Origin: a virus
Length of the DNA stretch: 40,186 nt
Strand: one strand, 5' to 3'
Virus record (IMG/VR): IMGVR_UViG_3300031749_000014
Location: 1-40,186 of that record
Part shown: positions 5,930 through 29,787 of the stretch, piece after piece
Layout: the number at the start of each line of letters is the position of its first letter
Position numbering within the stretch: the stretch's first letter is position 1
The notes under the pieces: model-generated
What the model saw: the letters and a program-made list of their open reading frames with translations, nothing else
What the model was told of the DNA's origin: nothing
Database searches by the model: none
Position numbers and translations under genes: made by a program

Positions 5930-8434
5930 TTATTTCACTCCTTTAATCATGTATCTCAAGGGGGAATTCTTGTCTATATTTTTCATAACAACATTGACAA
6001 TGTAGTTCTCACTGTCAAATGTCGTTGAGACATTCTCACTGGTCATTCTATAAGGTGTATTATTATGAATGTTCACAGTCACCTTTGGTGAGGGTTTGGA
6101 AGCAAATCCTACTTCAGGGGGTGGAATTGTAACTGGTACAGATGTCGCTGGTTGTGCTGGAGCCATCATAGGCATCATCACGATCCCCTTAAGCCCTTGT
6201 ATAAAGGGAGCAATTATAAATGTTCTCAACAGTTCTATGTAAATCTGATGAAGTATGTCCAATATCAAATCTCTCCAACTTAGAAACCTTTCTGATGTGT
6301 AATCAAAGAACTCTTCTAAACCTCTTTGCATTGCAGATATTATTGAGTTTGTGGTTGAATAAGCTTGTCTAAATCCTGATAAAGACCTTTCATACTCTTC
6401 AAATGCTCTTCTAATACCCATAGACCAATTATCTGAGCTTTCAAGAAGTTCTTCATCTATATTCCTTATCTTTGTTGCGACATCTTTGATTTGATTAGCT
6501 GTCTCAAACCAAGCCTCTGGTGCCACATCCCTAATCTCAGATAAGACCTTGTATTCCTGAAATAGTATATTTAAAAGGTTTTGATACTCAGTTCTTTGTT
6601 TTTCAAGCAATGCTATTCTTTCTTTGTTATCGAAAATGAATGGTTCCTGCATTTCATATTCAGCTATTCTATACCTTGAACTCGCCTCTGCAAGTCTGTT
6701 TTCATTCTTTATTTTTTCTATCATCAATTCATTATCAAGCCTTTTAATAATATTAGTCCTTGCTTGTTCTTTGGCTACTTCATCATCAATAAACTTTGTT
6801 TTATCTTCCAGCTCTTTCAACTCGATATACTTTTTGTATTCATATTCAGCGTCCAGAGTACCTTTAGCTTGTGCAAGGAGCCATTTCATGGTATCCTCAT
6901 CTTGTTCCGCATATTTCTTATCTATCTCACTTAATGCATGTGCCATTTGTTCATGAAGCAACTTACGAAGACTATTATGACCTTCAAGTTTATTAATCTC
7001 ATCTACGTACCTCTGTTCCAATTGATATTTCTCATATTCTCTTTCATTAAGAACCAACTTCATTCTCTCATCCATATAGAACTTAAAGACTCTGAGATAT
7101 TCTTCTAAGACTTTGTTGTCTATTGCTGGTTCTTCCTCTCCAAAGGGTTTTAATTTAGGTATCTCTGGTGGTTTTATTGGTTTTTGAATCTGACCCTTGA
7201 ATTCATCATAGCGTTTCAGAAAATTACCCATTATATCATCCCCTGCTTTATCAGCCCATTTAGTGAGGTCATCCCAGTAATTCTCCACATCTTTTTTGAA
7301 AACCTTTAAGTCATCTAATCCCTGCTTGAAACTTCCTGTCATAAGGTCATACATTGCGACCGCTAATGTCTGTAATGGTACTCTCACCATAACTATCTTA
7401 TTGACAAAATCAGAAAATGATTTAGTGATGGTTGGGATTATGGTATAAGCTATGAGTCCGAGACCTTCTAAAATCTTCTCAATTATTGTAAGAACCCATG
7501 AGAAGGGTTTGAATAGATTGTAAGCATTCTCAAGGACCCCATAAACCGATAATGCAATCTTGTTGATTGACCCCGCTAACTTATCTGAGATACTTTTATT
7601 TTTACTTATCCCCTCGCTTATAGATGAGAGTAGCGATTTTATCTTTTCAAATGTAACACTTATACCAGCTCTCAAAACTTTCTGGTGTAAGGTATCAAGT
7701 GTTGATGTTATAGCGGTCCAAGTTGTATTCACATGTTTTGACATCTCGAGATAACCAGAAAACATTTGGAGAATTATCCGTTTCTTTTTCTCAATATCCG
7801 TTTCATGCAACATCTGTTCATAGAGTTCAGCATTAGTTGCTTTCGCCACCATGGCTAATGTGGAACCTACTCTTGCTGTGCCTTCAAGAAATGCTCTAAC
7901 CTCTTGGTAGAGCTGTTTTTGTTTATTTATGTCCTGCGTTAACACCTTAGCCGCTGTAGATATTGCAAGCCATAAATTTAGGTCTTCACGCCTTAAGACA
8001 TTTATCAGGACACCTCTCGAGGCCATTGCCTCATAGGTATCAAGAAGCTCTTTTGCTGTTCCAATAAATTGGGGGTCTAATTCAAGTGCCTTTTCATATA
8101 CAAGCGATGACCAATGATAAGCATTCTCAAATACCTTTCCAAGATTTTCTTTCTCACCAGACATTGATGTGAGAAGACCAGCTATTCTCATCATCTGGTC
8201 TTCAAAATCCTTTGAGTAAAGGAATGCATTCCTCACCTCATTTGAGATAGCTCTCATAACAGAAAGTATCGAAACAACCGAAGCATAACCCAATGCAAAC
8301 ACAACAACAGTATCTTTCCAGTTTTTAATCATTCTTGAGATAAAACTATCAGTCTCTTTTATTTGAGACTTCAATGTCTCATCTTTAGAGGATAGTTTGA
8401 CATTTATAGATACATCAAAATTAGCCTCTGCCAT
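5930..8434 (-). CDS. Tail tape-measure protein
   Basis: This 834-residue protein is nearly the same length as lambda H (853), implying a tail of roughly lambda length by the usual length rule. It has an early hydrophobic helix (about residues 40-65), a hydrophobic middle section (about 310-345), long charged coiled-coil sections (about 440-720), and a C-terminal block with hydrophobic helices followed by beta-like sequence, as in lambda-type tape measures. It sits between the frameshifted tail chaperone and the M-like gene, the standard place. The ATG is two bases after the stop of the frameshift product. No peptidase or lysozyme domain was recognised in it. Confidence 0.93.
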   Translation of the reverse strand: MAEANFDVSINVKLSSKDETLKSQIKETDSFISRMIKNWKDTVVVFALGYASVVSILSVMRAISNEVRNAFLYSKDFEDQMMRIAGLLTSMSGEKENLGKVFENAYHWSSLVYEKALELDPQFIGTAKELLDTYEAMASRGVLINVLRREDLNLWLAISTAAKVLTQDINKQKQLYQEVRAFLEGTARVGSTLAMVAKATNAELYEQMLHETDIEKKKRIILQMFSGYLEMSKHVNTTWTAITSTLDTLHQKVLRAGISVTFEKIKSLLSSISEGISKNKSISDKLAGSINKIALSVYGVLENAYNLFKPFSWVLTIIEKILEGLGLIAYTIIPTITKSFSDFVNKIVMVRVPLQTLAVAMYDLMTGSFKQGLDDLKVFKKDVENYWDDLTKWADKAGDDIMGNFLKRYDEFKGQIQKPIKPPEIPKLKPFGEEEPAIDNKVLEEYLRVFKFYMDERMKLVLNEREYEKYQLEQRYVDEINKLEGHNSLRKLLHEQMAHALSEIDKKYAEQDEDTMKWLLAQAKGTLDAEYEYKKYIELKELEDKTKFIDDEVAKEQARTNIIKRLDNELMIEKIKNENRLAEASSRYRIAEYEMQEPFIFDNKERIALLEKQRTEYQNLLNILFQEYKVLSEIRDVAPEAWFETANQIKDVATKIRNIDEELLESSDNWSMGIRRAFEEYERSLSGFRQAYSTTNSIISAMQRGLEEFFDYTSERFLSWRDLILDILHQIYIELLRTFIIAPFIQGLKGIVMMPMMAPAQPATSVPVTIPPPEVGFASKPSPKVTVNIHNNTPYRMTSENVSTTFDSENYIVNVVMKNIDKNSPLRYMIKGVK

Positions 8435-10033: not shown

Positions 10034-10196
10034 CTTTTATATCCTCCTCTTTACCCTGTTTTTTCTGTTTATTGAGGTCTTTCATAAAGTCCTCAACTTT
10101 GACCTTTTTACCTCCAACTAATACTTCACCCGTTTCATCATCAAACGGATAATATTTGCCATTTATCTCATAATAAGAACCACCAACTCTTATCAT
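9996..10196 (-). CDS. Small phage protein, unknown (tail module)
   Basis: This gives a 66-residue protein beginning MIRVGGSYYEINGKYYPF. I chose the ATG at 10196 because AAAGGAGG lies just upstream and the ATG overlaps the preceding stop as ATGA; a longer frame from 10247 would lie wholly inside the preceding gene. The first 35 residues look like small beta-strands with Gly-Gly turns; the remainder is a Lys/Glu-rich helix. It overlaps the tail tube start by 38 bp, so it is translated as part of the neck/tail set. No family was recognised. Confidence 0.65.
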   Translation of the reverse strand: MIRVGGSYYEINGKYYPFDDETGEVLVGGKKVKVEDFMKDLNKQKKQGKEEDIKDVNKENSSISKG

Positions 10197-10633
10197 GCCA
10201 CTGACCTCCTTTCCCAACAAGTTAATTCTAATTCTGCAAAGTGACATAGTATGTCACCAAATTCCCTTAACTCTACAGATAATACTTGAACTGGATTTGA
10301 ATCTATTACCTTTCCACCAAGGGTGGGGTCTCCCCTAAATTTATCACATATAGACTCGATCATTGACTGAAATGTCTTTTCAGACATTTCGTCATCTTTG
10401 AGGGAGTAAAATCCATAGATTTTAAAGGTATATTCCCTTTTATGATAGGGGTATGACTCTGGTTCTTCCAAAGTCTTTGTTCTTGTAACCATCCAACCAG
10501 AAATTTTCTTACCATATTTGAAGAGTGAGAGAAATGAAGACCAATTGGTCGACCAACGCATATAATCATAGACATTGCCTATGTTAAGACTATCTATCGA
10601 TAGCCTAACATATTCAAGTATTTCCTTATACAT
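10193..10633 (-). CDS. Probable tail terminator / neck protein
   Basis: The 146-residue protein lies between an HK97 gp10-like protein and the tail tube, where tail terminator (tail-completion) proteins are usually encoded. It begins with a helix (MYKEILEYVRLSIDSLN) and continues with alternating strands including YTFKIYGFYS and QVLSVELREFGDILCHFAELELTC, an alpha-beta arrangement seen in tail terminators. It overlaps the gp10-like gene by 40 bp. The sequence alone does not show a decisive motif; the function is inferred from place, size and fold pattern. Confidence 0.6.
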   Translation of the reverse strand: MYKEILEYVRLSIDSLNIGNVYDYMRWSTNWSSFLSLFKYGKKISGWMVTRTKTLEEPESYPYHKREYTFKIYGFYSLKDDEMSEKTFQSMIESICDKFRGDPTLGGKVIDSNPVQVLSVELREFGDILCHFAELELTCWERRSVA

Positions 10634-13789: not shown

Positions 13790-13818
13790 GTGAAGTTAAA
13801 TAATTGATAAGAAAAATA

Positions 13819-13940
13819 AGGGATAAAATCGAGGAGGGTAAAACAAAGGGGGGTAAAATAATGAGGAGGGTAAAATAACAAGAAGAGGGCAAAAATAACA
13901 AGAAGGCTAAAATAACAAAGAGGTTAAGATAACAAGAAGG
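13819..13940. repeat. Degenerate ~17-bp tandem repeat upstream of the capsid promoter
   Basis: About seven imperfect units based on GGGTAAAATAACAAGAAG begin near 13819, 13836, 13851, 13868, 13887, 13905 and 13922. Purines dominate the plus strand. The array ends about 30 bp upstream of the capsid promoter's -35 box, so it may be a set of binding sites for an activator of the capsid operon. No coding frame is implied. Confidence 0.7.
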
Positions 13941-14330
13941 GTATGCTAACCCCTTGCTTGCCTTCCTGCATTAATCTTGTCAAGCTTATCTGGTATATTT
14001 TAGCCTTGCTAAACAGAATTGCTTAAATTTTTGATACTGGAAAGTATTTACCCGAGGATTTTTGATACCCAATTTAAGCAAAAGATTGAATCAGACTATG
14101 GGGGTATAATGCAAGAATTAGGGAATGACGTAAGCAAAAGGCAAAAGTAAAGGCTGAATAACATAGCCTCTCACATATCTCGGACCTAACACCTACGATC
14201 TTGCTTGGGATAAAAACAAAGAGTTCACATCAGAATAAAGACTGGATAGAGAATCACTAATCAAAAGGCCACTACAAAAGAAGTTCCATTGGATACACTT
14301 TCAGGATAGTAAGTTTCAAATGGATAACAG

Positions 14331-14763: not shown

Positions 14764-14853
14764 GCGTAGAATGCCCAAATTTCGCATTTCTCACCTTGGT
14801 CAATATGATAAGTCATGTGTACCCAAAAAAATCGAAATATGACGATTCTACGC
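14764..14853. repeat. Palindromic element A (left flank of cassette)
   Basis: Arms of 21 bp at 14764-14784 and 14833-14853 are inverted repeats with 17 of 21 positions matching, starting and ending GCGTAGAAT/ATTCTACGC. The left arm plus 6 bp (14764-14790) is a 25/27 match to 16088-16114. The interior (48 bp) is not coding. It resembles a small hairpin mobile element or an end sequence of a larger one. Confidence 0.65.
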
Positions 14854-14864
14854 AATCGTTTTTT
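14842..14864 (+). terminator. Short hairpin followed by T-run
   Basis: ACGATT (14842-14847) pairs with AATCGT (14854-14859) across a 6-nt loop, with T continuing to 14864. It overlaps the right arm of element A. It could end transcription from the decayed region before the cassette. Confidence 0.4.
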
Positions 14865-15139
14865 CCAGTCTTTTTTGAAAAATACTAACTGAAGCAAGAG
14901 GTATGCCATATCTGAAAATGTAATGTTGCAAATATCACACACACTATGAAATACATTACATAATAAAAAATGTTATTTATCAAGCACTTATCCCATTTAT
15001 GTAATTCATTTCACAGTTGCAATTTTACAATACTATATGTAGTGGTTTTTGCTGGTATCAATACTGATAAAATGTATGATAAAATATTTGATATTGGTAT
15101 AGGAATTGCTTTATATATATTTAGAAAGGAGGTGAAAAA

Positions 15140-15337
15140 ATGAGAAAGTATGAAATCCAAATTGATAGAGACAATATCTATATATCCAGGGATTTTCCCG
15201 AGCTGAAACGCAGAATTTCCAGACGGGTTCTGAATTGCAGCGATCGGGAATCCCTGATCCGCTGGGCCAAAAGAGACATACTTAGGGAAGCTCAGGAAGT
15301 TTGGGGCTTCCCTAAAAAAAGAAAGGAGGCAAAATAG
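15140..15337 (+). CDS. Small cassette protein 1, unknown
   Basis: This 65-residue basic, helix-rich protein starts at an ATG behind AAAGGAGGTG, the best ribosome site in this part of the window. The middle reads ELKRRISRRVLNCSDRESL, and the C-terminal end is Lys/Arg-rich, which would suit RNA or DNA binding; no family was recognised. GC content is visibly higher than in the phage genes around it. Two strong hairpins lie inside the gene (15238-15264 and 15282-15315, the latter a perfect 10-bp stem), so structure continues into the coding sequence. It is followed 7 bp later by a 15-bp stem. It is likely co-transcribed with the gene at 15472. Confidence 0.6.
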   Translation: MRKYEIQIDRDNIYISRDFPELKRRISRRVLNCSDRESLIRWAKRDILREAQEVWGFPKKRKEAK

Positions 15338-15343
15338 ACAAGA

Positions 15344-15385
15344 GGGGGAATCGTGAAGAAATAGATGCACTTCACGATTTCCCCC
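15344..15385 (+). ncRNA. 15-bp hairpin in the leader between the two cassette genes
   Basis: GGGGG plus AATCGTGAAG (15344-15358) pairs with the complementary arm at 15370-15385, with a single extra T bulged and an 11-nt loop. It begins 7 nt after the stop of the first gene. No T-run follows, so it is not a standard terminator; mRNA stabilisation, processing or protein binding are possible roles. Confidence 0.65.
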
Positions 15386-15393
15386 AATTGACA

Positions 15394-15457
15394 TAAGGCT
15401 TGATACAAGCCTTGGGTCTCCCACCTTTGGTGGGGTAAGGGCAGTAAGCAAGCCTTA
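15394..15457 (+). promoter_or_regulatory. Mutually exclusive stems before the second cassette gene
   Basis: TAAGGCTTG (15394-15402) can pair with CAAGCCTT at 15406-15413 (3-nt loop) or with CAAGCCTTA at 15449-15457. A third hairpin, CCCACC/GGTGGG, sits at 15420-15434. The second copy ends directly before the GGAGGG ribosome site (15459-15464), so switching could change access to the start at 15472. This is the geometry of a translational switch; no ligand or known class was recognised. Confidence 0.5.
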
Positions 15458-15471
15458 TGGAGGGTGAAAGA

Positions 15472-15969
15472 ATGAAACAAGAAATTCAAAAAAATGAGAG
15501 GGGCTTTTTCTTCTTCGAGCTCCGCTCAGGAGCTCATAACTATATTCGCACCCGCATCTGGGTGCATCGGGATCTGGTCAACGAGGAGGAAACTCTTGAT
15601 TTCCCCCTTGTGGGGGCCAAGGTCGTCAAAACCCCCAAGGGGGGGCTCGTTCTCCGCCCAGCGGAGAACGAGCATTGGGTTGCCTTGATCACTGAAAGAT
15701 CAGGGTATAGAGGCACAGCCTCAATCTCAGTTGAGGCTGTGGAAGGAGGAGAAGTTGAGGTTATAACCTCTGGGAGAGAGTTTCATTCTCCCAGGGGGAG
15801 CCTGGGCGAAACGGCCTGGGCTTTAATCAATGTAAGAGGCAAAATCAGAGTCCGCGCCCACATTACGGGGCGTAGGATTTCCAAAAATGATTTTTCCTAT
15901 ACACTCTCTCCCACTGGGGAGAAAGTGGAAGAAATATGTGAAGAGGTAGAAAAATTCCTCACTCAGTAG
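15472..15969 (+). CDS. Hairpin-packed cassette protein 2, unknown, beta-rich
   Basis: The start is the ATG at 15472, 7 nt after GGAGGG; an in-frame ATG at 15457 overlaps the switch stem and lacks a site. It encodes 165 residues, mostly alternating hydrophobic strands: GFFFFELRSG near the start, LVGAKVVKTPKGGLVLRPAEN in the middle, and TASISVEAVEGG further on, ending in a Glu-rich helix. No family was recognised; a small beta-barrel or jelly-roll, for example a virion or nucleic-acid-binding protein, is plausible. GC content and codon choice differ from the phage. Almost the whole coding sequence folds into successive hairpins, so its codons are constrained at RNA level. A terminator follows at 15997. 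Confidence 0.6.
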   Translation: MKQEIQKNERGFFFFELRSGAHNYIRTRIWVHRDLVNEEETLDFPLVGAKVVKTPKGGLVLRPAENEHWVALITERSGYRGTASISVEAVEGGEVEVITSGREFHSPRGSLGETAWALINVRGKIRVRAHITGRRISKNDFSYTLSPTGEKVEEICEEVEKFLTQ

Positions 15970-15996
15970 GATTCCTAGGTGGAAAATCAAATATTC

Positions 15997-16022
15997 AGCC
16001 CGCCATAAAGGCGGGCTTTTTT
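15997..16022 (+). terminator. Intrinsic terminator of the cassette
   Basis: AGCCCGCC (15997-16004) pairs perfectly with GGCGGGCT (16010-16017) over a 5-nt loop, followed by T to 16022. It lies 28 nt after the stop of the second cassette gene and closes the transcript. Confidence 0.9.
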
Positions 16023-16087
16023 ACTCAAATCGTTATAGCCTTTTTTGTAACATCAGACCTACCCCCCAAAAAATAGTATCTGTAATT

Positions 16088-16172
16088 GCGTAGAATCTCC
16101 AAATTTCGCATTTCGAAACCAAAGACGATATTTATATCGCATTTTGCAAAAAAAACGAAATTTGGGGATTAC
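16088..16172. repeat. Palindromic element B (right flank of cassette)
   Basis: The 15-nt arms 16094-16108 and 16156-16170 pair with a single G-T type wobble. An internal CGATAT/ATATCG hairpin lies at 16126-16139. The outer left side (16088-16114) repeats 14764-14790 in the same orientation with 25 of 27 bases equal. It lies 11 bp from the stop of the minus-strand gene ending at 16184, so it might also serve that gene as a 3' hairpin. Confidence 0.65.
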
Positions 16173-16183
16173 AGAAAGAATTC

Positions 16184-16479: not shown

Positions 16480-16825
16480 CATAACAATATAGTAAGAGTA
16501 TACTTTTACTAATACGTATCTTTAAATTCAATAAAAGAATATAATATATTTTATATACTAGTACTAGTACTAGATACCGGTTACCAGGAAAATACCAAAG
16601 AATTTGAGTAACAAAGGCGTATTTTGAGTAACAGCAAAGTAACACCAAAAGTAACAAGATGAGTAACATGTAATTGGTATAAATAGCTAATATTATTACG
16701 TTTAGTACCATAAGTAACACTTTCTCTATATAGGGCAGGTTATAAAAAAAATGACTGTTACTCATGGTGTTACTCACCTGTTACTTACCTGTTACTCATG
16801 TGTTACTCACCTGTTACTCATCCTC
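16480..16825. other. Presumed replication origin with 12 AGTAAC iterons
   Basis: Six AGTAAC copies on the plus strand start at 16607, 16627, 16638, 16650, 16662 and 16713. Six copies in the opposite orientation start at 16757, 16769, 16780, 16791, 16802 and 16813, spaced 12, 11, 11, 11 and 11 bp, about one helical turn. The last overlaps the stop codon of the primase-helicase gene. A very AT-rich stretch at 16480-16560 lies beside the array, with TACTAG repeated three times at 16556-16573. Iterons plus an AT-rich region next to the replication gene is the usual layout of an origin. Function is inferred. Confidence 0.7.
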
Positions 16826-19705: not shown

Positions 19706-20107
19706 ATGGCATCAATATTCACAATTTTCATTCATGATATTCCTTTGGAATTTTTTAAAAAACTTGAAGATGCTGGATTTGAGGTCGAATCGAGAGTTTC
19801 AAAAGATGGTGTAATTGAGAGGTATCATTACACCTCTGATTTTAATGTAAGATCAATAGAAATATTCTTTTTCTCAAAGAGTTTTACAATCGATAAACAA
19901 AGTCTAACACTTAAGGTCGAGGAAAGTGAATACACAATACCAAAGGTATCCAATATTCATATTCGGAATATTCCTCTTGAGTTCCTTGAAAGACTCAAAC
20001 AAGCGGGCTTAGTAACTCATTGTGAAGATGGCTCATACGCTATTACTATTGATGATGATATTAAATTGAGTTTTCAAGAAACTCCAAAAGAATCAAAGGA
20101 GAGATAA
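19706..20107 (+). CDS. Two-repeat small protein of a local family
   Basis: This 133-residue protein has two similar halves: IHDIPLEFFKKLEDAGFEV (about residues 8-27) and IHIRNIPLEFLERLKQAGL (about 84-103), each followed by strands. The gene at 20266 has a single copy of the same pattern (ISIDGLPESFFIALDNAGLDV). Each unit looks like a strand, a helix and a beta meander. The start follows an AAAGGAGG site that lies inside the end of the ERF gene. I do not recognise the family. Its place between recombination genes suggests an accessory role to DNA handling or host takeover; this is an inference only. Confidence 0.75.
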   Translation: MASIFTIFIHDIPLEFFKKLEDAGFEVESRVSKDGVIERYHYTSDFNVRSIEIFFFSKSFTIDKQSLTLKVEESEYTIPKVSNIHIRNIPLEFLERLKQAGLVTHCEDGSYAITIDDDIKLSFQETPKESKER

Positions 20108-25053: not shown

Positions 25054-25627
25054 AACTTCTAAATTTAATATCCGAACTTGATGGTTTTGTTATCTTATCT
25101 TTATACATCTTCATCATATCCTTACACATCTGATGTGCTATCTCAGCCTTGCCCTTATAATTAACTGAGTCTGCTTCTATAGTAGATTCACTTGAGGTTA
25201 GTGATTTGTTTGCTATTACTCGATATGCATTCGCCTGAGCAAGGTAAAAAAAGGCATCTAATTGGTCAGAGTTTAACATTGAGTATGTCGGTTTGATATA
25301 GTAATGAATTCTTACTTTCTCATTTGTATCAGTAGTCAAAAACCGAACTTTATAACCATTGTAGTAATAGATTTCATAGTCTTGATTTGGTATGAGATAT
25401 GATGGTGAGATATCCGATATGGGATATTCTATTATAAGTGGTTTATCGGGTAGGTAATCAGAAGATAGTGACAATGGATTACTAAAGTCATACTCTACAG
25501 TGTTTTCTATTGGTTCCATACCATCAAGAGTTCCATCGAGTATTGAAACTATTGTGTCCTCAGTAAGATACTCAATCAAATCACTTAAAATATTACAAAA
25601 TCTGGAATATATTTCTTCGTATGTCAT
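25025..25627 (-). CDS. Probable head-tail connector / virion protein
   Basis: This 200-residue protein starts at the ATG at 25627, which overlaps the stop of the giant gene as ATGA; a TTG at 25648 is a weaker choice. The N-terminal half contains Ser/Pro/Tyr-rich strands, and about residues 125-180 form helices (SDQLDAFFYLAQANAYRVIA, GKAEIAHQMCKDMMKMY), similar to the helical bundles of phage head-completion proteins. The place, downstream of portal and the giant protein, supports a connector or minor head role. I cannot assign a named family. Confidence 0.5.
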   Translation of the reverse strand: MTYEEIYSRFCNILSDLIEYLTEDTIVSILDGTLDGMEPIENTVEYDFSNPLSLSSDYLPDKPLIIEYPISDISPSYLIPNQDYEIYYYNGYKVRFLTTDTNEKVRIHYYIKPTYSMLNSDQLDAFFYLAQANAYRVIANKSLTSSESTIEADSVNYKGKAEIAHQMCKDMMKMYKDKITKPSSSDIKFRSYGYIFWSSR

Positions 25628-28600
25628 AGTTGTCTCCCGAACTCCCAAATATCTGTATTTTTATCAGTTCTTTTCATTATATACCTACCTTTCATCTTTT
25701 TACCTTTAAAATCAAATCTTACCTCAGTCTCTTGCTCAACTTGTGTTTCACTTATTACGACTGAGCCTTTATCCACCATCCTAATATAACCTGCACTCTC
25801 TCCATAGCTTGCAGAACCTGAGGTAAACTTCTCAGCACCATTTTCACCAGCATGGAACCAATCTGTTTTACCCTCAAACCTTTTTTCTCTTCTTATTATA
25901 CAAGAAGTATTCGAGTCCAGTGGATTCATTTCCATGACCATTGTGAGCAATTCCTCATCCTTAATTGCAATTCTAAGTAGGTACTCATAGTTCGCTGGTA
26001 CGCCAATTCTTTTGACTGACCTTGATGGCTCAGAGTAATGAAATTGTAAAACAAAGTTCGTATTCATTTCACCAGCTTTGACATGTTGACTCAATATGTC
26101 CTTAATATTCTCAACAAGTCTATTTCTTACACTAATCCTCTCTTTCTCGTCCCTTATTTTCCAATACTGGTATTCTGGTGGTACACGTTCTCTCATATAT
26201 TTGGGTATCCCAGAATACCCATAAGGTGGTATCCTATTATTTTTAACTGCTCTTGGTTTTAGATAATATGGCAATCCCTCATCGAATATACATATCCATA
26301 TTGGTCTATCAATCATAATCCGTCTTATCATCCAGTGCCAACGGAAGTTACCAAAGTCAAGGAAATACTCTTTGGCATAACTTGTCATGTATCCTGTTTC
26401 TATTATTCCTTTTCTCACAATACGCATTACTGAATGACCATCTTTTGTGGATGGTATATCGTTGGGTTTGAATACACCTTCTACATCTAACCACTCTGGA
26501 GGAATAAATGGTTTCTTTTCAACCTCAATTTCTTTTGAGACAATCTTGCCTTTATTCAAATCAATCTTCCAATTATCAGGGTCTTTGTCATATGCTTCTG
26601 CAGAATATTTGCCATCTCCTACCTCCAAAGGAGGGACTCTTATTGTGCCCTCTCTTTGTGTCAATAATGTCCAACCACTTAAGAAATTATTATCATTTTC
26701 ATATCTAAGGTCATTATGCACTGAAGGTGAGTGCTTATAATTTGGATGTGAGTCAAAGTATTTTTCTAATTCTTCTTTAACCTCATTCCATTTATCCCAA
26801 TTGCTTTCTAATTCATTCCATAATTCTGATTTGCCAATCTCATTTAGAATATCCTTTAATGCACAACGATAATGCGATTGTATTACAAATCTATGCTCTT
26901 TATCCTCTCTTATTGGTTGATATGGGTCTTCTGATTCAGTTAAATTGACCTCATCATTTATCAAGTCATAAAGGTCTTTGTCTGTGGTATCAACCTCAAC
27001 TCCATTTTTATGAAATGTTTTTGTATACTCTTCTGACATAGACTTTGCATAAAGTTTTCTGATATTCATATTTATAATCTCCCTACAAGCATCAAGGTCT
27101 GTGAAGTCGGTTAGATTTCTCCTGAGGATATGCCCAGACTGGTCTATTACCCAGACCTCTTTTGATTCTGGAAATGATGATATTTTTGAATCCTTAACGA
27201 TGATACCAACTAACTCTCTGGATTCATAAATGACACCTTCTGAGGTAATCTTCTTTATGCAAAGAACATGGTTCTCTTTCATGGATTTTCTGATAACATC
27301 ATCCATGGAATCAATCTTATTAGTTTTTCTAAGAAATCTCGGACCGTAATATCTTATATCTATCCCCTTATCAGAATAAATTACATTTACACCCTCAGAC
27401 TCTATTTCAACAGGTGTCCATTTCTCCACATATGGTGCATTGAATGTCTTACCTACAATAAGTATATTTCCTTTAGGACTTTCGATGACATTATCATGAT
27501 TAGCATTCTCATTGGCAATGCAACCGACAACCAAATTATATATTCCTTTCTTACTCGTTTCTATTACATCAACAACAATGAGATTGGTCACAACATTATT
27601 ATGCAGTTTGACCCACTCATTATCTCTTGGTCTTCCATTCAGTGTGTAGATGGAGTTCTTGAGTTTTACAACAACACCTTCGGAACCATATTCCTTTCGT
27701 TTTTTATCCACCTCTGGAGCAAGCTCCTTTTCATTATTGCATAACTCATGAGTGACTATCCTTAAGACATCACTTGAGAAAGAGGTATCAGACCCTATGG
27801 ATTTTAGAATTTCATATCTTTCATTATATGGCTTATTATGAATGTCCTCTTCATAGAATAAGCAATCAAATATACTTGCGATAAAAGAACTGTCATCACA
27901 ATCTTTTGAATGTATCTGACCTATAATGTATTCTCTTGGATAGTGTTTGCCATTGTGCCATGACTCAATCTCACAATCAAAACATAACTTGTTAACCTTT
28001 AATTTTTTAACAGCTTCTACAATCCTTGGAACCTTATTTGTTATAGTGCTACCGTCTTCAGAATAAACTATAACTTTATCACCATCTTTATGAATGACTC
28101 CTCTCATACCGTCTTTTTTGGTCGAGACATAACAAGGGTATTTAACTAATGCAAGAAGTGATTTAACAGTCTGCCTCTCTTTTTGAGTGCGTTTAGGTAT
28201 AACTGGTTTCATAGGTATAAAAAATCTACCTATTTCAATCCTATCTTCTTTTTCGCTCATTTCTGCCATCTTCTCAAAATCTTTATTCTCGACCCTTAAG
28301 TTGACACTGAGACCCTCTTTAAAGTCCATATCATATATCTTTTGTGCATATTCTTCCTCTTCAGTGTCCCTTATCTGTGGGGTTGCAGGAACAAGTTTGA
28401 GATGGTATATGGGGATATATGAAGCATTTGCACCCATAAGAGCAGGCGGTGGAAAATCAGGTTTAATCATCTTACCTAAAGCCGATTTAGTTGCATACTG
28501 GATGACCCTTTCCAGTTTATGCAACAAACTTGTATCCACTGGAAGATACCATTTTCCATTTATCTCTGTAGCCTTTACAATTACATCTATATCTCTTGGT

Positions 28601-29787
28601 TCATGTGATCTTGCATGGACTAATGAACCACCAATAGATACAAATTCAGGACACCATGTGAAAGTAGGTAAGTATTTGGAGATGTTTAAAACATCTCTAT
28701 TTAACTCAATAACCATGCCATCATGAGCAAATGTAATATCCTTTTCAGGATATGACTCTACAAGCTTGAGGTAATAATGGTTTTCGTTTTTTATCATAGA
28801 ACTCCCAAAGCCAGTGATAATAACCCTAATCTCATTTGGTATCATTTGAATAATTTCTGTAAGTGGATAACGTTGCTCATACATGGTGTCAAATGAGTAA
28901 CCTTCTACAATACATGTATCACAGTTATCAAATACACTGGGATCTATTGAACTTGTTATTTCTGGTGCATAAATAAGATTGTTAACCTTGTAGATTATAT
29001 TATCATTCTTTGACACTGAGCATTTGATTTCTTCAGTTTCAAAATTAGACTCCAATGATTCGAGTTTTTCTTTTGTGAGTATCAAACTGTTAAAGACGAT
29101 TTTGAAGTCATTTGATACCATGTGTCTTTTTGAGTAACTTTCAGTTTCACCCTTTGTACCAATAAATTTGATAAATGGTCTTCTCACTGATTCCTGAACG
29201 TTATTGATTCTTACAAATAAACAAGAGTCTTTTGGTATCTTTACATCTTTGGGTTCGTCATATCTGTAAAACCTATCTACTTCAAAATCATGACCATTGT
29301 CACTGTTTTTGAAACTAATGAGCCCATAACATTTGTCTGAGTCCACAAGATATCTGGTTTCAAGAAGTGAAAAGAAATCTTTATTTACGGTTACCTTGTT
29401 TATTTTACCCTCATAGATATCCTTTGCTTCTTTTATGTTTACCGCACCATTTGGTAATCCCATACCGATAATCTTTCTTCTTTTTTCTTTCCATTCTGCT
29501 ATCTCGTCGCCACTTGGAGGCTCAGTCTTTATATAGCCTTTTTGTTTTGCGGATTTGTAACACTCCCAAAATGATGAGTTATCATCTTTTGGTCTCAATT
29601 CGAAGTAACATTCATTTCTTAAGACATCTACTACCTCACCAAACTTTTGTAGTAAACCATCAAGAGTCCAATCACCCCAATCCTTGCCATCTTTGAGTCT
29701 TGGGTAACCCACATTGCCCATGAATCTCAATGCTGATAGTAGTTCTCTCCAATACTTTTTTGGATTCTTTAAATCTCTCTCAAGCAT
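25624..29787 (-). CDS. Giant nucleotidyltransferase - ATP-dependent DNA ligase - phosphoesterase-like protein
   Basis: This 1387-residue protein is a chain of DNA-end enzymes. The N-terminal ~370 residues are not recognised. A nucleotidyltransferase core follows with GGSLVHARS (386-394) and Asp 399/Asp 401. Residues ~530-830 are an ATP-dependent DNA ligase: KKDGMR with nucleophile Lys 557, FDCEIE (Glu 606), FDCLFY (640-645), EGVVVK (703-708) and WVKLH (725-729). Two C-terminal sections resemble the LigD 3'-phosphoesterase fold: FVIQSHY (967-973), HNDLRYE (1024-1030) and EGV (Glu 1103); then FVLQFHY (1245-1251) and a closing KGRYIMKRT (about 1366). It sits between portal and connector genes, so it may act in or on the virion DNA ends. 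The ligase call is strong; the phosphoesterase call is pattern-based. Confidence 0.85.
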   Translation of the reverse strand: MLERDLKNPKKYWRELLSALRFMGNVGYPRLKDGKDWGDWTLDGLLQKFGEVVDVLRNECYFELRPKDDNSSFWECYKSAKQKGYIKTEPPSGDEIAEWKEKRRKIIGMGLPNGAVNIKEAKDIYEGKINKVTVNKDFFSLLETRYLVDSDKCYGLISFKNSDNGHDFEVDRFYRYDEPKDVKIPKDSCLFVRINNVQESVRRPFIKFIGTKGETESYSKRHMVSNDFKIVFNSLILTKEKLESLESNFETEEIKCSVSKNDNIIYKVNNLIYAPEITSSIDPSVFDNCDTCIVEGYSFDTMYEQRYPLTEIIQMIPNEIRVIITGFGSSMIKNENHYYLKLVESYPEKDITFAHDGMVIELNRDVLNISKYLPTFTWCPEFVSIGGSLVHARSHEPRDIDVIVKATEINGKWYLPVDTSLLHKLERVIQYATKSALGKMIKPDFPPPALMGANASYIPIYHLKLVPATPQIRDTEEEEYAQKIYDMDFKEGLSVNLRVENKDFEKMAEMSEKEDRIEIGRFFIPMKPVIPKRTQKERQTVKSLLALVKYPCYVSTKKDGMRGVIHKDGDKVIVYSEDGSTITNKVPRIVEAVKKLKVNKLCFDCEIESWHNGKHYPREYIIGQIHSKDCDDSSFIASIFDCLFYEEDIHNKPYNERYEILKSIGSDTSFSSDVLRIVTHELCNNEKELAPEVDKKRKEYGSEGVVVKLKNSIYTLNGRPRDNEWVKLHNNVVTNLIVVDVIETSKKGIYNLVVGCIANENANHDNVIESPKGNILIVGKTFNAPYVEKWTPVEIESEGVNVIYSDKGIDIRYYGPRFLRKTNKIDSMDDVIRKSMKENHVLCIKKITSEGVIYESRELVGIIVKDSKISSFPESKEVWVIDQSGHILRRNLTDFTDLDACREIINMNIRKLYAKSMSEEYTKTFHKNGVEVDTTDKDLYDLINDEVNLTESEDPYQPIREDKEHRFVIQSHYRCALKDILNEIGKSELWNELESNWDKWNEVKEELEKYFDSHPNYKHSPSVHNDLRYENDNNFLSGWTLLTQREGTIRVPPLEVGDGKYSAEAYDKDPDNWKIDLNKGKIVSKEIEVEKKPFIPPEWLDVEGVFKPNDIPSTKDGHSVMRIVRKGIIETGYMTSYAKEYFLDFGNFRWHWMIRRIMIDRPIWICIFDEGLPYYLKPRAVKNNRIPPYGYSGIPKYMRERVPPEYQYWKIRDEKERISVRNRLVENIKDILSQHVKAGEMNTNFVLQFHYSEPSRSVKRIGVPANYEYLLRIAIKDEELLTMVMEMNPLDSNTSCIIRREKRFEGKTDWFHAGENGAEKFTSGSASYGESAGYIRMVDKGSVVISETQVEQETEVRFDFKGKKMKGRYIMKRTDKNTDIWEFGRQL

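What the first reader, a model, noticed from the sequence alone, without database searches (positions are those of the whole stretch)
15189..16017. Two-gene cassette whose coding RNA is a near-continuous chain of hairpins
Seen in sequence: about twenty stems in 830 nt, several perfect and long (13 bp at 15645-15673, 11 bp at 15714-15741, 10 bp at 15282-15315, 15 bp with one bulge at 15344-15385). Most lie inside open reading frames with good ribosome sites, and their loops are only 3-14 nt. Ordinary genes do not show this, and the rest of the window does not. Inference: the transcript is selected as a folded RNA and as mRNA at the same time, as in single-stranded RNA phage genomes or packaged/satellite RNAs. 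The cassette's GC content differs from the phage. It could be a parasite of the phage, a packaged RNA, or a defence or counter-defence module.
Basis: partly seen in the sequence, partly recalled or inferred. Interest (0 to 1): 0.85.

Follow-up and report, generated by a model that had tools for sequence, protein, structure and literature searches.

The report
Hairpin-chain mRNA in a phage
A small gene pair in a DNA phage, probably from a hot environment, is written so that its messenger RNA folds into an almost unbroken chain of long perfect hairpins, more excess folding per base than in the RNA-genome phages MS2 and Qβ, although relatives of its main protein in other viruses lack the hairpins.

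Summary
The unit 15186-16024 folds far better than chance: dinucleotide-shuffle z -11.6; codon-preserving z about -8.4 for ORF2 (none of 200 shuffles came near) and -3.0 for ORF1. ORF2's excess folding energy, 0.123 kcal/mol per nt, is 7.8 SD above 125 viral genes and exceeds MS2 and Qβ genes (0.063-0.085). It is confined to one + strand transcription unit ending at an intrinsic terminator. ORF2 is a genuine protein gene: it belongs to phrog_13554, known from Yellowstone Sulfolobus rudiviruses, and I found relatives in several tailed-phage-like contigs. Those relatives keep the protein but not the stems, so the hairpins arose in this lineage. In six of nine ORF2 stems one arm encodes family-conserved residues and the other encodes variable or inserted residues. 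The architecture is not levivirus-like: no RdRp, no more pairing than MS2, but longer, perfect, local hairpins. My best reading: inverted (template-switch) copying built the hairpins, and they were kept because they give a heat- and RNase-stable 'superfolder' mRNA. The retention step is inferred. Purely mutational origin without function remains a serious rival.

The parts
15125..16024 (+). Inferred transcription unit: weak promoter-like site at 15094-15121, two ORFs, intrinsic terminator
   Evidence: Strong SD AGAAAGGAGGTGA at 15123-15135 and terminator. The promoter match is no better than shuffles, so the 5' end is inferred.
15140..15337 (+). ORF1, 65 aa, basic/acidic; first ~45 nt weakly structured, the rest folded
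   Evidence: codon z -3.0; no relatives in viral contigs, phages or related records
15282..15315 (+). 10-bp perfect hairpin in ORF1
15344..15385 (+). 15-bp hairpin (one bulge/mismatch) in the spacer
15392..15459 (+). Bistable spacer element: CATAAGGCTTG (15392-15402) can pair with 15449-15459 (11 bp) or with 15406-15413 (8 bp); inner CCCACC/GGTGGG hairpin
   Evidence: model probability 0.85 distal, 0.15 proximal at 37 C
15472..15969 (+). ORF2, 165 aa from ATG 15472 (SD GGAGGG 15459-15464; alternative ATG 15457), phrog_13554 family protein
   Evidence: phrog_13554 E 4e-6; 37% identical relative L026, E 3e-16
15517..15535 (+). 7-bp hairpin; L026 has a stem at the same codons with different base pairs
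   Evidence: isolated case, may be chance
15645..15673 (+). 13-bp perfect hairpin, loop 3; 5' arm encodes conserved LVLR, 3' arm variable AENE
15714..15741 (+). 11-bp perfect hairpin
15767..15797 (+). 11-bp hairpin; 3' arm encodes the conserved SPRG motif, 5' arm lies in a residue insertion unique to this copy (TSGR)
15798..15823 (+). 10-bp hairpin; 5' arm encodes conserved GSLG
15997..16024 (+). Intrinsic terminator, 8-bp GC-rich stem then T run
14764..14856 (.). Left flanking palindromic element, about 93 bp, GCGTAGAAT...ATTCTACGC ends
16088..16175 (.). Right flanking palindromic element sharing GCGTAGAATnnCCAAATTTCGCATTT with the left one; the only two copies in the window

Best explanation
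A viral accessory gene of the phrog_13554 family, with a small upstream ORF, is expressed from its own + strand unit in a tailed dsDNA phage of a probably thermophilic host. In this lineage its message was secondarily rebuilt into a chain of long perfect hairpins. Inferred: the hairpins arose by inverted copying of codon blocks into neighbouring tolerant codons (DNA template switching). Inferred: they were kept because the RNA stays folded at growth temperature, which protects it from heat hydrolysis and RNases and gives a long-lived, still translatable mRNA, a natural 'superfolder' mRNA. Shown here: excess folding, its confinement to the unit, the protein family, absence of the stems in relatives, asymmetric arm conservation, and predicted retention of pairing at 70 C. 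Not shown: transcript lifetime, origin mechanism, selection, protein function.
For: Codon-preserving z -8.4, excess 0.123 kcal/mol per nt, beyond MS2/Qbeta and 7.8 SD above 125 viral genes. High + strand z begins at ORF1 and ends at the terminator; flanks are near 0 on +. The unit keeps 57% of bases paired at 70 C (-0.193 kcal/mol per nt) against 31% (-0.038) for another window gene. In a full-unit fold the ORF2 SD is 18% unpaired at 37 C and 66% at 70 C. Window proteins have IVYWREL 0.414, nearer a Thermus phage (0.423) and a rudivirus (0.435) than T7 (0.381). Arm asymmetry: in six of nine stems one arm encodes clearly more conserved residues, including an insertion complementary to the conserved SPRG codons. 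Codon-on-codon register 57% against 36 +/- 8%. Template switching can create perfect stems in one event (PMC8794818). Highly structured coding regions raise mRNA stability and can still be translated (PMC8940940).
Against: No relative shows the stems, so there is no covariation to prove selection (homologues pair at about 0.40, equal to slid controls; L031 slightly higher at 0.55). Sense-strand preference is only about 2 SD. Inverted repeats are also enriched in the non-coding flanks, 1.8/kb against 0.19/kb elsewhere and 7.2/kb in the unit, which suggests a partly locus-wide DNA process. No RNA data; host and temperature are not established.
Confidence: 0.4

Rival explanations
1. Mutational only: repeated template switching (quasi-palindrome correction) at a fragile, transcribed locus made perfect hairpins wherever the protein tolerated it; the folded RNA has no function.
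For: Stems are unusually long, perfect, local and small-looped: 8.4 perfect stems of 8 bp or more per kb against 0-3.6 in MS2/Qbeta, mean stack 6.2 against 4.2-5.1, while total pairing is not higher. Flanks also carry extra inverted repeats. Arm asymmetry and the inverted insertion fit templated overwriting. In yeast such mutations were seen only under high transcription (PMC3820800), which would explain confinement to the unit.
Against: G-U excess and sense-strand energy preference (about 2 SD), and region 15739-15933 folds well only as sense RNA (z -3.8 against -1.2; segment chosen after seeing the scan). Needs many events in one 840-nt unit while spacing, SDs and terminator stay intact.
Confidence: 0.3
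2. The folded transcript is itself an active RNA (decoy, scaffold, packaged or regulatory RNA) besides coding ORF2.
For: The whole unit including the spacer is folded; the spacer has a bistable element.
Against: No Rfam match at gathering level; only weak chance-level matches below it. Relatives lack the stems. No repeated motif among the stems.
Confidence: 0.13
3. Translation control: stems bury the ORF2 start and slow ribosomes, working as a temperature-sensitive or bistable switch that keeps a harmful product low.
For: ORF2 SD unpaired 0.18 at 37 C and 0.66 at 70 C in the full unit; two mutually exclusive pairings in the spacer.
Against: In the local fold the SD is already open at 60 C and above. 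Control of initiation does not need stems throughout the coding region.
Confidence: 0.1
4. The unit is a DNA copy of, or a parasite derived from, an RNA virus or satellite RNA, or an assembly chimera.
For: RNA-phage-like excess folding, foreign GC, flanking repeat elements.
Against: ORF2's relatives lie in dsDNA viruses of bacteria and archaea. No RdRp was found among the window proteins scanned. The gene is also GC-rich in unrelated contigs, for example L047 0.53 against 0.36. Chimerism cannot be excluded because no near-identical contig spans the unit.
Confidence: 0.05

Closest known systems
phrog_13554 proteins of Usarudivirus (Sulfolobus islandicus rod-shaped viruses 4-7, 9-11 and isolate V3)
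   Same: ORF2 matches the family (E 4e-6), shares SPRGSLGE, GYRG and the TxKG block, about 30% identity; AlphaFold model best viral hit is SIRV11 (E 5e-8)
   Different: Their genes are AT-rich (GC 0.29-0.32) and show no excess folding, z +0.3 to -0.9; archaeal hosts
ssRNA phage genomes (MS2, Qbeta; Leviviricetes)
   Same: Coding RNA with strong codon-level folding excess, about 0.06-0.085 kcal/mol per nt
   Different: No replicase or coat; fewer pairs but longer, perfect, local hairpins; carried in a dsDNA phage
Template-switch-made RNA hairpins (PMC8794818) and transcription-associated quasi-palindrome mutation (PMC3820800)
   Same: Perfect inverted repeats with short loops; inverted copy beside a conserved block
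   Different: Described for rRNA genes and yeast reporters; here about a dozen stems packed in one phage coding unit, and no ancestor is available to show the events
Designed 'superfolder' mRNAs (PMC8940940)
   Same: Synonymous choices give a strongly folded coding region with open start sites
   Different: Those are engineered; here natural, stability untested

Membership tests
phrog_13554 (viral protein family, unknown function) | Profile match over the conserved core | tested here: met
   E 4.1e-6, residues 47-148; relatives through alignments A1, A2, A4
phrog_13554 (viral protein family, unknown function) | Conserved SPxGSLG, GYRG and KT.KG motifs | tested here: met
   Alignments
ssRNA phage / satellite RNA | RNA-dependent RNA polymerase or levivirus coat/maturation gene | tested here: not met
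   No Pfam or NCBIfam match for either ORF; only phrog_13554 at E below 0.01 in PHROGs
ssRNA phage / satellite RNA | Coding RNA with folding excess over codon-preserving shuffles | tested here: met
Structured RNA family conserved by covariation | Homologues keep the pairs through compensatory change | tested here: not met
   Pairs kept in about 40% of cells, equal to slid controls, in 8 of 9 homologues; L031 0.55 against about 0.41
Known Rfam RNA family | Match at gathering score | tested here: not met
   weak matches only
Template-switch hairpins | Reverse-complement copy beside an ancestral template, shown against an ancestor | tested here: inconclusive
   Arm asymmetry and unique inverted insertion TSGR opposite SPRG, but no close ancestor
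Superfolder mRNA | Longer RNA lifetime because of coding-region structure | not testable with these tools
   Needs RNA half-life data

The most novel reading that the evidence does not exclude
A dsDNA phage keeps one accessory gene under direct selection for RNA-genome-grade folding: a natural superfolder mRNA, made by inverted self-copying of its own codons, adapted to survive heat, RNases or RNA-targeting immunity and possibly acting as an RNA in its own right.
Probability: 0.25. Interest if true: 0.82.

Novelty: new variant of a known kind. Interest (0 to 1): 0.6.

Why it matters
It is a natural case in which a protein gene was rewritten into long hairpins while staying within its family, at a level beyond classical RNA phages. 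If selection keeps it, it shows how mRNA can be stabilised by its coding sequence at high temperature, something so far pursued by design. If mutation alone made it, it is a striking record of template switching writing protein sequence. Reads from the source environment can tell these apart.

Tried and rejected
Close relatives of ORF2 or ORF1 by exact peptide patterns in viral and (ORF2) genome collections: none. ORF2 and ORF1 against phages, and ORF2 against plasmids, at E up to 1: none; only the ORF2 core at E up to 10 led to the rudiviruses. Host through terminase in genome contigs: none. Window relatives through primase and capsid: no ORF2 gene in those records. Solved structures by sequence or fold: no usable match; the model is weak (pLDDT 63.5) and PDB hits are meaningless immunoglobulins. 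The flanking palindrome motif in viral contigs: one hit checked, L016, is a lone 16-mer in an unrelated place; none of those records has the gene. The two-stem pattern in L026 looked like conserved structure at first, but its overall z is only -1.5 and pairs are not kept. An initial whole-window z scan and one shuffle script timed out and one script failed; all were replaced.

Full report
What was checked. The window is a 40,186-base virus record coding a tailed phage: terminase, portal, capsid/protease, prim-pol, Erf. The cassette sits in a roughly 3 kb interval between the capsid gene (starts 13763, - strand) and the primase gene (ends 16814, - strand), on the opposite strand. ORF1 (65 aa, 15140-15337) has a full Shine-Dalgarno. 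ORF2 (165 aa) most likely starts at ATG 15472 behind GGAGGG. A GC-rich hairpin with a T run at 15997-16024 ends the unit. The promoter is not settled.

Is the folding real? Yes. MFE of 15120-16030 is -387.8 against -280.5 +/- 9.3 (z -11.6). With codon-preserving shuffles ORF2 has z -8.4 and the best of 200 shuffles is 41 kcal/mol short; ORF1 has z -3.0. Calibration matters, since ordinary genes scatter: T7 genes average about -0.75, the Thermus phage P23-45 about -2.5 with one gene at -6.1, and MS2/Qbeta genes -3.7 to -11.6 (averages computed from its table). In energy per base ORF2 (0.123) exceeds MS2/Qbeta (0.063-0.085) and the best P23-45 gene (0.075). Against 125 genes from related and unrelated viral contigs, mean 0.008 and maximum 0.045, it is 7.8 SD out. 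The signal starts in ORF1 near 15186, covers the spacer and ORF2 and ends with the terminator; + strand flanks are near zero.

RNA or DNA level? Most stems are perfect, so both strands fold. Codon-preserving z is -8.4 for sense and -8.3 for antisense. The sense strand has an extra energy advantage of -29.6 against -17.1 +/- 6.0 in shuffles and an extra G-U share of 0.085 against 0.030 +/- 0.028, each about 2 SD. One stretch, 15739-15933, folds well only as sense RNA (z -3.8 against -1.2), but I picked it after seeing the scan. This favours RNA-level selection modestly and does not settle it.

What the protein is. ORF2 matches phrog_13554 at E 4e-6. A tblastn of its core led, at a non-significant E of 8, to a 185-aa hypothetical protein of Yellowstone Sulfolobus rod-shaped viruses; that protein matches the same profile at E 7.5e-110, which makes the link firm, and is present in 16 rudivirus records. 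Using alignments I then found relatives in contigs that look like bacterial tailed phages or large phages: L026, L031/L046, L045 (next to a terminase), L047 (next to a TROVE/Ro60-type protein), L048, L049; and in L039, a 50 kb contig with a rudivirus-like copy. Shared motifs are KT.KG, GYRG and SPRGSLG. The family therefore appears to cross the bacteria-archaea line among viruses. Its function is unknown; an AlphaFold model of modest quality is beta-rich and matches only the SIRV11 relative.

Do relatives fold? No. Codon z: SIRV10 +0.3, SIRV6 -0.4, SIRV4 -0.9; L026 -1.5; L031 +0.6, L039 0.0, L032 0.0; L045 +2.0, L047 +0.1, L048 -1.0, L049 -2.4. Pairs of the window structure mapped on a codon alignment are met in 38-45% of cells, equal to slid controls; L031 is 55%. 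So the stems were most likely acquired in this lineage.

How they were acquired. In ORF2 one arm of most stems encodes family-conserved residues and the other variable ones: LVLR opposite AENE, RSGY opposite VALI, GSLG opposite AWAL, WVH opposite RTR, and most tellingly conserved SPRG opposite TSGR, which lies in an insertion seen in no relative. Pairing is enriched in codon-on-codon register, 57% against 36 +/- 8%. This is what inverted copying of a conserved block into a tolerant neighbour would leave, and also what selection for stems under protein constraint would leave. Compared with MS2/Qbeta, total pairing is not higher (0.63 against 0.65-0.72), but stacks are longer (6.2 against 4.2-5.1) and perfect small-loop stems of 8 bp or more far denser (8.4 against 0-3.6 per kb). 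Template switching is documented to create such stems (PMC8794818), and in yeast to act on highly transcribed DNA (PMC3820800). Inverted repeats are also enriched in the flanking non-coding DNA, which a locus-wide DNA process would explain.

Why they might be kept. Predicted pairing of the unit at 70 C is 57%, close to that at 37 C, while another window gene drops from 50% to 31%. ORF1's start is open, and ORF2's start opens with temperature in the full-unit fold. Structured coding regions protect mRNA from hydrolysis and can still be translated (PMC8940940). The phage proteome has an IVYWREL share of 0.414, closer to thermophile viruses than to T7 (the link of that index to growth temperature is from my own knowledge). 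I therefore favour a naturally stabilised mRNA, created by template switching, at 0.4; mutation without function is close behind at 0.3.

Limits. One sequence, no RNA data, no close variants, host unknown, assembly chimera not excluded. My literature searches found no report of a dsDNA-phage gene of this kind, but the library is partial.

Noticed in passing
window 10193-10633 (-), 5930-8434 (-), 19706-20107 (+): Three other genes with codon-preserving folding z of -5.1, -4.1 (first 630 nt) and -3.2, well above the rest of the phage though far below ORF2.
   Followed up: partly
window 13814-13956: Array of about 17-nt direct repeats (AACAAGAAGGnTAAAATAA) upstream of the capsid gene; looks like iterons or operator sites.
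   Followed up: no
window 16625-16820: Cluster of direct and inverted AGTAACA/TGTTACT repeats with 11-nt spacing next to the end of the primase gene.
   Followed up: no
window 14764-14856 and 16088-16175: Two palindromic elements sharing a 26-base motif (24 specified bases) flank the cassette and occur nowhere else in the window; a composite mobile unit is possible.
   Followed up: partly
L047 4989-5522, L026 3953-4486, L049 4977-5519, L021 3170-3727, L032 3953-4507: The phrog_13554 gene is GC-richer than every 500-nt window of its 3.5 kb flanks in six of ten loci (window included), in unrelated viruses.
   Followed up: partly
L047 3053-4606 (-): A phage-like contig encodes a TROVE/Ro60-type protein (Pfam E 7e-36) near the ORF2 relative; Ro60 proteins bind structured RNAs.
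   Followed up: no
L043 (Thermus phage P23-45): Genes of this thermophilic phage have clearly negative folding z on average (about -2.5) while T7 genes do not (about -0.75); a general thermophile trend is worth testing.
   Followed up: no
window 25624-29787 (-): 1387-aa protein with an ATP-dependent DNA ligase domain in its middle, in the structural gene region.
   Followed up: no
L031 878-3610: SNF2-type helicase with an intein-like insert containing a LAGLIDADG domain, beside the ORF2 relative.
   Followed up: no
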